Assembly (NCBI GenBank): GCA_029204225.1
Contig: CM055106.1
Coordinates: 39,149,827-39,213,826 of the forward strand
DNA: 64,000 bases
Direction of reading: 5' to 3'
From: Diphasiastrum complanatum
Lineage: Eukaryota; Streptophyta; Lycopodiopsida; Lycopodiales; Lycopodiaceae
The notes beneath the pieces were generated by a model. The model was not told the DNA's origin, made no database searches, and saw nothing but the letters and a program-made list of their open reading frames with translations. The number at the start of each line of letters is the position of its first letter. Positions within the stretch are counted from its first letter, which is position 1. The translations under genes were made by a program, and so were the position numbers. Of this stretch, positions 58,017 to 60,192 are shown piece after piece.

Positions 58017-58440
58017 ATGACGCGGACCAAGCAAACTTCACGAGGCCACCCTAGTGGAATACCAATCTCAGGAGCGGGACATGGAAGTCCACAACCACCA
58101 TCTCGTCCACTACCACCTCCTCCTAGGCCAAGGAGTAGAAGAAGAGACCCACCTTGGCTCAAGGATATTCGAAAGCTATAGAAGACAAATAATCTTTTGA
58201 TTCCAAAAGCTCACATACAGAGATCCATCAGGCAGGTTACAAGAAGTCTATCTGTAGATGTGAGATGGACGGTAACGGCAATTGAGGCGCTGCACACTGC
58301 ATATGAGGATTTCCAGGTGAAATTTTTTTCAGATACTGTTGTTGCAACTGTCCATGCCAAGAGGGTGACCATCATGCCCAAGGATTTCAACATTATGTTC
58401 AAGCTTCAGGACGCATATGACAAATTTGTAGAATACTTTA
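58017..58440 (+). CDS. H3-like histone domain of gene C
   Basis: About 140 codons. Kept from H3: Arg2-Thr3-Lys4-Gln5-Thr6 of the tail, an alpha-N-like WLKDIRK segment, NLLIPKA, an Arg after the alpha-1 region, TAIEALHTA.EDF of alpha-2, and HAKRVTIMPKD. Lost: Lys9/Ser10 (Gly-His instead), the Lys14-Lys27 tail (replaced by a Pro/Gly/Arg-rich stretch), and most of alpha-1 and alpha-3 identity. The length (core about 95 residues) suits an intact fold. The short divergent tail and divergent core resemble centromeric H3 variants as a class, but shared residues do not allow me to place it. Confidence 0.7.
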
Positions 58441-58957
58441 GACCTGCTCCCTCCTCTCCTCCAAAACAAGATTCAGAGAGGAGAAAACGAAAGCAATCTC
58501 AACCATCTCGGCTTGTTATTCGTATACAGAACGAGAGTGTTTCAAAAAAGAGGAGGTATCTTGACCTCCAAATAAAGCGAGAGATTTTTCCAAGCCATCT
58601 CCTCTGGATGAAATTCTTACTTCTAGGCATTCTCCTCCCAATTCTCCTCCTAAGTCTCCTTCTCCTTCTCCCAAAACTCCATCTTTACCTTCTCCTGCTA
58701 AATCTTTCTCTCCTAATAAATCTCCTCCGCCTACCCCCATAAATATTAGTTTCTCTCTACCTGTTCTAGGAAATGATTTAGATGATTTTGTTAATATAAA
58801 GGTAGAATCAATTTTGAATGACAATTCTTTTTTTGGTTTATCTGTATTACTTCCGTCACCCCCTGCACTTGCCTTTGTAAATACTCCTCAATATGTACAG
58901 TATGACCAATTGTTGAACACGTATCTTAAAGGTTTAGGTCCTTGATACAGTTTTAGG

Positions 58958-59942
58958 ATGCCGAAGACCAATGCTGGTCTCTCACTTTCTAGTTTAGATA
59001 CAGGTGAATTAGAAAGTAGGGATAAAATGTTAGTTGACAATGTAGGAGGTGGGGCCATTCAGTATTGGATGGAATTTTTTCAGACCCCATTGTTTATAGA
59101 TGTAGCATTATTTCTCCTTCAATTCATGGCTGCATTTGATTTTCTTGATTTCAAAAGTCTGCATGATGATATGCTCCAATACGTCAGACTGGGGACTCCA
59201 ATTTTTGTGCTGCCATACATAACAAAGTAAGTGTCTTTTTTTTAGACTTTATTATGTTGAGTTTTTCATATGAATTTTTATTTCACATTGATTCTCACTA
59301 ATTTATTGTTTTCGGATTGCAGTGATCATTGGAGCTTATATGTGTTGTCCTTATACGTCAATGATGAGGGTGTGTGTAATCTAGTTTGTTTAAAGATGAA
59401 CTCTATTACACACACACACACACACACACACACACACACACACACACACACACACACACACACACACACACACACACACACACACACACACACACACACA
59501 CACAAACACACACACACACACACACACACACACACACACACACAAATTTGCCAAGAGCCATGTCCAGAAAATACTGGAACTCTTTCTAATACCAAATGCA
59601 AAAGCATATACGAAGCTAAAAACTATTGATGCAGAGGTAAAAATTTATCAATATCGATTCGACGCGCCCTTGTAGTTATTGTTTGGTTCTTTTCATAACG
59701 TGCGCGCTGATCCGATATTCAAAAAATATATTTTTGATATCGGTTCGATGCACCCTTGTTTCCATTGTAGATTTAATTATAACATCCTGCGTGTTGATCC
59801 GATATCTCATAATGTTAAAATTTGAATTTTGCAGTCCTCCCAGCAGGTTGATTCTGTCAGCTGTGGTTGGTATACCATATGCAATGCCAAACACTTTTTT
59901 AATTGGCTTGCACTACAAGATGGACTTCCAAATCTGGAAGTG
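58958..59942 (+). CDS. Ulp1/C48-type cysteine protease domain of gene C
   Basis: Three exons. Exon end 59226 PYIT(N); exon 59323-59636 DHWSLYVLSLYVNDEG, with His-Trp typical of Ulp1; exon 59835-59942 with QQVDSVSCGWYTICN, the C48 Q....(D)CG signature of oxyanion Gln and nucleophile Cys. The Asp expected in the LDS segment after the His is not obvious (CLKMNSI). The 137-bp AC repeat (59408-59544) lies in that exon and keeps or breaks the frame depending on allele length. Family role: desumoylation or polyprotein processing. Confidence 0.65.
59408..59544. repeat. (AC)n microsatellite inside gene C exon
   Basis: 137 bp with one interruption at 59504-59506. Encodes poly Thr-His in frame if translated. 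Length changes would shift the reading frame of the downstream catalytic Cys. Confidence 0.95.
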
Positions 59943-60192
59943 GTAATCTTCGATTAATAACTTTAAATTGTGTTTTTGTTTATTTCTAATTCAAATTAAT
60001 ATTAACTGATCTTTGATTAATTACATTTAACCGTGTTTATGTTTTTTTTATTTTTTTTAGTTTAAATGCCCGAAGGTCTCCCCAATGGAGATAATGCACA
60101 ACCTTTGCCACAACCAATTCAAACATGCGACATTAGTTCACTTAGATGTGTTGCAGCAAAGCTTCGATTAGATCATCATCTGAACATATCCA

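What the first reader, a model, noticed from the sequence alone, without database searches (positions are those of the whole stretch)
58017..60192. Histone H3-like protein fused to a Ulp1-type protease in one gene
The frame from ATG 58017 begins MTRTKQTSRG and later reads HAKRVTIMPKD, both hallmark H3 stretches, with the intervening fold pattern kept. The same gene continues, through introns that keep frame, to DHWSLYV and QQVDSVSCGWYT, the His and Gln/Cys signatures of C48 (Ulp1/SENP) peptidases. A chromatin protein joined to a SUMO-type protease is not a host architecture I know. The neighbours are unknown genes and repeats, which suggests a selfish element using a histone mimic.
Basis: partly seen in the sequence, partly recalled or inferred. 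Interest (0 to 1): 0.92.

Follow-up and report, generated by a model that had tools for sequence, protein, structure and literature searches.

The report
Jumping gene with fused histone-protease protein
An abundant jumping gene in this plant genome carries a protein made of a histone H3-like part fused to what looks like a SUMO-type protease; the copy in the window is broken, but copies of the family show selection on both halves, which suggests a way for a selfish element to act on its host's chromatin.

Summary
Window 58017-60160 encodes an H3-like histone fold (PF00125, E 7e-21) followed by a probable CE-clan (Ulp1/SENP-like) protease, but this copy is dead: two in-frame stops, a frame break, a (CA)n array, deletions, lost ends. 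The fusion is real in the family. An own-genome search gave 7397 first-look candidates; 150 of 150 scored match at E<=6.6e-86. Of 31 copies picked by the H3 part, 28 carry the protease N part and 27 each the His and Cys exons; L040 has one open 404-codon exon joining H3 and protease N part. dN/dS is 0.25-0.47 in both domains (0.76 just after the fold). The gene is one of four in a repeat with terminal inverted repeats and a transposase-like gene of unassigned superfamily. The tail keeps H3 K4 (30/31) and lacks K9 (31/31). Around the gene, inverted motif arms pair at 50-51 bp (35 pairs; 0.14 by chance). Protease homology stays below significance (SENP8 E 0.12). Best reading: a transposon accessory protein acting like VANC/KIU anti-silencing factors through histone mimicry and tag removal; the mechanism is inferred. 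Eight library searches listed no such fusion.

The parts
53878..62312 (+). Whole repeat copy (truncated at both ends, with internal deletions); ends seen in other copies are CATTAGGGGAAATATGGG... and ...ATATCCCCTAATG
   Evidence: blastn against six other copies; left border and terminal sequence in other copies; right border
53939..55222 (+). Gene 1, transposase-like (broken here; in other copies LDES..., GDLK..., CLYC..., HxCTLH motifs)
   Evidence: ORFs; no Pfam match over a cut-off, no NCBIfam or PDB match; transposase is inference
55806..56781 (-). Gene 2, unknown protein (pieces), shared with copies A37 and B38
   Evidence: ORFs; blastn; no Pfam match for its pieces
57398..57464 (.). Paired inverted-arm unit (+57398 / -57449)
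57846..57912 (.). Paired inverted-arm unit (+57846 / -57897)
57940..58006 (.). Paired inverted-arm unit ending just before the ATG (+57940 / -57991)
58017..58589 (+). Gene 3, H3-like part: tail and histone fold; TAG at 58179
58589..59226 (+). Gene 3, Pro-rich linker and protease N part, in another frame in this copy; TGA at 58943
59323..59408 (+). Gene 3, His exon (DHWSLYVLSLYVNDEG...MNSI); end uncertain, followed by (CA)n
   Evidence: splice sites inferred from gt/ag only
59550..59636 (+). Gene 3, exon ...ILELFLIPNAKAYTKLKTIDAE (start uncertain)
   Evidence: aligns with SENP8
59652..59717 (.). Paired inverted-arm unit inside the intron (50-bp spacing)
59738..59804 (.). Paired inverted-arm unit inside the intron
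59835..59942 (+). Gene 3, Cys exon SSQQVDSVSCGWYTICNAKHFFNWLALQDGLPNLEV
60061..60160 (+). Gene 3, start of the last exon (FKCPKVSPMEIMH...), interrupted by the ~365-bp deletion after 60099
60725..61901 (-). Gene 4, unknown protein (two frames in this copy); DNA 61400-61950 has 2297 first-look candidates in the genome
   Evidence: no Pfam family over its cut-off
62294..62312 (+). Remnant of the right terminal inverted repeat (AAAGGGCCCATTTTGAGTT)

Best explanation
The finding is a dead copy of gene 3 of a high-copy, multi-gene DNA transposon family. Shown: the family encodes an H3-like histone fold fused, in one exon, to the N part of a protease-like region whose His and Cys motifs lie in the following exons; both halves show purifying selection between copies; and the gene's own non-coding DNA carries paired inverted sites at 50-51-bp spacing. 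Inferred: the protein is an accessory, anti-silencing factor. Its H3-like part (H3-H3' interface and several DNA-contact residues kept, K4 kept, K9 absent) would put it into or onto chromatin of the element, helped by the paired sites. The Ulp1-like part would strip SUMO, NEDD8 or ubiquitin-like tags from silencing or chromatin factors there, so that the element stays expressible. This works like VANC/KIU proteins of VANDAL elements without being one of them.
For: Histone fold: PF00125 E 7e-21. Fusion: 28, 27 and 27 of 31 copies keep the protease N, His and Cys parts; L040 is open over 404 codons. Selection: dN/dS 0.38 or 0.47 in the fold (two alignments), 0.34 in the tail, 0.25 in the protease N part, 0.28 in the Cys exon. 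Transposon: left terminal sequence in 16 of 20 left-end loci, right terminal sequence in 5 of 6 right flanks, linked genes, 1588 to 7397 first-look candidates per query. Paired sites: 35 at 50-51 bp in seven copies against a mean of 0.14 (maximum 2) under random placement; 11 motif hits inside 56800-60350 and 0 elsewhere in the window. H3 residues R83, R116, T118, D123 kept in 31/31, H113 and K4 in 30/31; position 9 is Gly in 31/31.
Against: No expression, binding or enzyme data. The protease match is below significance (E 0.12; hhalign probability only 4.6% against the host SENP8-like protein) and its catalytic Asp is not identified (MNSI in all five rows). Just after the fold dN/dS is 0.76. 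H3 R63 is lost in 31/31 copies. Arm identity (0.72) against interior (0.29) is inflated because arms were found by motif. Copies are related and some are near-duplicates, so pair counts are not independent. 13 of 28 copies have the H3 and protease parts out of frame, 13 more are in frame with stops, and only L006 (internally shorter) and L040 are in frame without stops. The full spliced protein was never seen intact. Nothing ties the paired sites to this protein rather than to another.
Confidence: 0.42

Rival explanations
1. Passive transduplication: the transposon picked up host H3 and protease fragments that only hitch-hike, without function.
For: Plant DNA transposons capture gene pieces (review PMC13317346, passages); fungal hAT elements carry amplified, mostly truncated H3 copies (PMC6710886, passages); most copies here are broken.
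Against: dN/dS below 1 in both domains, conserved H3 contact residues, conserved fusion and conserved non-coding sites.
Confidence: 0.15
2. The protein works in transposition itself (chromatin access, target choice or processing of the transposase), and the paired 51-bp sites are transposase or promoter sites, not sites of the histone-protease.
For: CACTA TnpA binds short subterminal repeats (recalled). The sites lie on the promoter side of the gene and in its intron, which also suits autoregulation.
Against: The sites found lie around gene 3, not at the element termini; the termini carry different sequence.
Confidence: 0.25
3. An endogenous DNA virus or Maverick-like element: histone genes and CE-clan proteases occur in large DNA viruses and adenovirus-like systems.
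For: Multi-gene layout with unknown proteins; viral histones and adenain-type proteases are known (recalled).
Against: Introns (inferred), short terminal inverted repeats, a transposase-like gene; no capsid match and only chance-level polymerase hits among the pieces scanned (RNA_pol_L E 0.19; RVT_1 E 0.09); a viral-contig scan with the H3 part found no relative.
Confidence: 0.06
4. Chance adjacency of an H3 pseudogene and a protease gene.
For: The window copy alone is out of frame.
Against: 27-28 of 31 copies keep both; L040 is a single open exon.
Confidence: 0.01

Closest known systems
VANDAL/KIU Mutator-like elements (VANC anti-silencing proteins; KIU = VANC gene with Ulp1 domain)
   Same: DNA transposon with several genes; accessory gene with an Ulp1-like domain; motifs concentrated in non-coding regions including introns (PMC5735166, PMC10398659, PMC13317346, passages)
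   Different: No Mutator-type or VANC-type Pfam hit among the pieces scanned; an H3 fold instead of a VANC DNA-binding part; VANC21 motifs stand in one orientation, here the arms are inverted pairs at 50-51 bp
hAT elements with captured histone H3 in Dothideomycetes (PMC6710886, passages)
   Same: A DNA transposon family amplifying an H3-like sequence to many copies, mostly truncated
   Different: H3 is a captured coding sequence there, no protease fusion in the passages seen; fungi, hAT transposase
SENP8/NEDP1 and other C48 (CE-clan) peptidases
   Same: HWSL, then QQ.(D/N)S..CG.Y in order; best PDB hit SENP8; aligns with the host SENP8-like protein of L001 over both motifs, 29% of 73 columns
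   Different: Below significance; catalytic Asp not found; fused to H3
Canonical H3 and plant CENH3
   Same: 34-36 of 89 and 36 of 91 fold residues identical, in three copies; tail close to ARTKQTAR
   Different: Pro-rich tail without K9; equally far from both; loop 1 without the CENH3 insertion

Membership tests
Histone H3 fold | Core histone fold by profile | tested here: met
   PF00125 E 7e-21, over its cut-off; H3 chains in PDB 7e-14
Histone H3 fold | H3-H3' interface and DNA-contact residues | tested here: met
   R83, R116, T118, D123 31/31, H113 30/31, R69 28/31, R72 25/31 (residue roles recalled); R63 lost in 31/31
CENH3 | Longer loop 1 than H3 | tested here: not met
C48 / CE-clan peptidase | Pfam Peptidase_C48 or significant homology | tested here: inconclusive
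   No C48 hit; window place not among the 3 PF02902 matches in the genome; SENP8 E 0.12; against the host SENP8-like protein P 0.0087, probability 4.6%, control P 0.74
C48 / CE-clan peptidase | His, Asp, Gln, Cys catalytic set in order | tested here: inconclusive
   His, Gln and Cys present in order; Asp not identified
DNA transposon with terminal inverted repeats | Fixed ends with inverted repeats in many copies | tested here: met
   Left ends in 16 of 20 loci, right ends in 5 of 6; never both in one copy read
DNA transposon with terminal inverted repeats | Target site duplication | tested here: inconclusive
   No copy with both ends was in hand; for two copies the place where a left end was expected held none, and one expected right end held none
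DNA transposon with terminal inverted repeats | Known transposase family | tested here: inconclusive
   Gene 1: no Pfam match over a cut-off, no NCBIfam or PDB match; AlphaFold2 model too poor
Mutator / VANDAL-KIU | MULE transposase and VANC-type Pfam domains | tested here: not met
   None among the pieces scanned; whole spliced proteins were not scanned

The most novel reading that the evidence does not exclude
A transposon makes its own H3: the H3-like protein, with host H4, assembles sub-nucleosomal particles on about 70-bp palindromic units in the element's non-coding DNA (a tetrasome-sized footprint), builds chromatin that cannot carry H3K9 methylation, and tethers a deSUMOylase-like enzyme there: sequence-programmed private chromatin of a selfish element.
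Probability: 0.12. Interest if true: 0.96.

Novelty: new variant of a known kind. Interest (0 to 1): 0.82.

Why it matters
Transposons that fight silencing are known in few cases. A transposon-borne H3 mimic that lacks K9, fused to a probable tag-removing protease and accompanied by dedicated paired DNA sites, would show that a selfish element can attack silencing at the nucleosome itself. It gives a directly testable protein, site and substrate, and perhaps a transposon superfamily not yet named, with thousands of candidate copies in one plant genome.

Tried and rejected
Chance adjacency (refuted). CENH3 origin: H3.1 and CENH3 score alike, left open. Stop 58179 as an intron effect: rejected, the family alignment to H3 is gap-free there. 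AlphaFold2 for the L040 exon (pLDDT 32.5) and gene 1 (32.3): too poor, so no fold search was made. Viral contigs with the H3 part: no relative. Target site duplication: not reached. Spread to other species: not testable here (protein database off, no relatives held). Protein alignment A2 misplaced rows and was replaced by A3.

Literature: eight searches, seen as listings, apart from passages of PMC6710886, PMC13317346, PMC5735166 and PMC10398659. One search listed nothing. No title or abstract start listed shows an H3-protease fusion or an H3-bearing plant transposon; the listed papers were otherwise not opened, and most subscription papers are not in that library.

Full report
What is in the window. 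The frame from 58017 starts MTRTKQTSRG and, after an in-frame TAG at 58179, continues through an H3-type histone fold. Read with X at the stop, the stretch matches PF00125 at E 7e-21. The part after the stop alone matches H3 chains of the PDB at 7e-14. The linker and the protease N part follow in another frame and past a TGA at 58943. DHWSLYV and QQVDSVSCGWYT follow in later exons (splice sites inferred), separated by a (CA)n array and an intron. So the two signatures are real, but this copy is not a working gene.

The fusion in the family. A search of the window's own genome (1.74 Gb, 5176 contigs) with the H3-like part gave 7397 first-look candidates; 150 were scored and all 150 matched at E<=6.6e-86, with 74-86% identity apart from the window itself. 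I took 31 copies: the 30 best loci (window included) and L040, which I had fetched because its H3 part lacks stops. 28 carry the protease N part, 27 the His exon and 27 the Cys exon, mostly about 790, 1170 and 1580 bases after the fold start. In L040 one open exon of 404 codons runs from the H3 tail through the fold and a Pro-rich linker into the protease N part. Among 28 copies with both parts, 15 are in frame and 13 are not; only L040 and L006 are in frame without a stop, and L006 is shorter inside. Several of the 31 are near-duplicates on small contigs (for example L018/L019), so they are not 31 independent insertions.

Selection. Over pairs of copies, dN/dS is 0.34 in the tail, 0.38 in the fold and 0.76 after the fold (31 copies, 465 pairs). 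With a second, tblastn-based alignment it is 0.47 in the fold (465 pairs), 0.25 in the protease N part (28 copies, 351 pairs) and 0.28 in the Cys exon (27 copies, 319 pairs). These figures include decay after insertion, so the active lineages were probably under stronger constraint (inference). Pairs are not independent.

H3 details. K4 is kept in 30 of 31 copies, position 9 is Gly in 31 of 31; K56, R83, R116, T118 and D123 are kept in 31 of 31, H113 in 30, R69 in 28, R72 in 25; R63 is replaced in 31 of 31. Roles of these residues are recalled.

The protease half. No C48 profile match, and the window place is not among the three PF02902 matches of the genome search. A profile of five rows finds SENP8 as the best of 177,635 PDB sequences, E 0.12, aligning the His and Gln/Cys motifs in order; the next unrelated hits are at 1.2 and 1.5. 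Against the host SENP8-like protein in L001 the P value is 0.0087 with 29% identity over 73 columns spanning both motifs, but hhalign's probability is only 4.6%; a control comparison gave P 0.74 and 0.06%. In Pfam, one member of five hits RickCE (CE clan, recalled) at E 0.19, while two unrelated families hit one member each at 0.06 and 0.09. The Asp of the triad is not identified. I call it a probable CE-clan protease.

The element. blastn against six other copies shows that 53878 to about 62230 belongs to one repeat family: genes 1, 2, 3 and part of 4 run co-linear in A37, part of 1 with 2 and 3 in B38, 3 and 4 in C39; E36 and F40 share gene 3 and its flanks; in D35 the piece from 61205 on is inverted. 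Against A37, about 660 bp, 1.1 kb and 365 bp are missing in the window. Copies found with the left part (40 scored of 1588 candidates) share a sharp border at sequences such as CATTAGGGGAAATATGGGCTCAAAATGGGCCC, found with up to 4 errors in 16 of 20 loci. Of six right flanks fetched, five end ...GCCCATTTTGA(G/T)TT...ATATCCC(C/T)TAATG, the inverted counterpart; in the sixth I saw none. The window keeps only a piece of it (62294-62312). By the coordinates, and besides the window, four of 40 listed left-part matches (two of them near-duplicates) and four of 40 listed gene-4 matches lie on the same strand and within 3.0-5.7 kb of a listed H3 match; all three lists are capped. The full length, about 10-11 kb, is an estimate from such distances. 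Gene 1 has LDES, GDLK, CLYC and HxCTLH motifs that look like a DDE transposase with a zinc site (recalled pattern), but no library names it. No copy with both ends was read, so the target site duplication is unknown.

Paired sites. A 16-base motif (TATCGG..GCGC, up to 3 mismatches) occurs 11 times in the window, all between 56800 and 60350; ten random 64-kb sequences with the same base-to-base steps gave 0-2. In all seven copies read the motifs (up to 4 mismatches) form inverted pairs: 35 pairs at 50-51 bp spacing against a mean of 0.14 under random placement, upstream of gene 3 and in its intron. Between units of one copy, arms are 72% and interiors 29% identical over 54 pairs; the arm figure is inflated by the way units were found. 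This suggests a two-fold protein complex on about 70 bp (inference).

How it likely works. VANC proteins of VANDAL elements bind motifs in non-coding DNA of their own family and induce loss of silent marks; KIU genes add an Ulp1 domain of unknown role (PMC5735166, PMC10398659 and PMC13317346, passages). The layout here suits the same job with different parts: an H3 mimic without K9 and a tag-removing protease. This step is inference. H3 capture by hAT elements of fungi (PMC6710886, passages) is the nearest precedent found for the histone; no protease fusion appears in the passages seen.

Limits. 

Noticed in passing
63220-63876 (-): Copia-type gag (PF14223, E 8.3e-20), next to the element.
   Followed up: no
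62564-62840: Long (GA)n array just right of the element remnant.
   Followed up: no
L031, L034 and eight other loci, column 99 of the H3-like alignment: 10 of 31 copies share a stop at the same H3-like codon, a Gln in the consensus: either inherited or repeated C-to-T change as expected of methylated copies.
   Followed up: partly
L001:1417-2103 (+): Single-exon host SENP8/NEDP1-like gene, the best C48 match of the genome.
   Followed up: partly
L045 near 1672: A diverged terminal sequence (CATTAGAGAAAATATGGGCCCAAAGAGGGCCC), perhaps a sister subfamily.
   Followed up: no
60059-60098 and 60312-60351: 40-bp direct repeat (88%) at the 3' end of gene 3.
   Followed up: no
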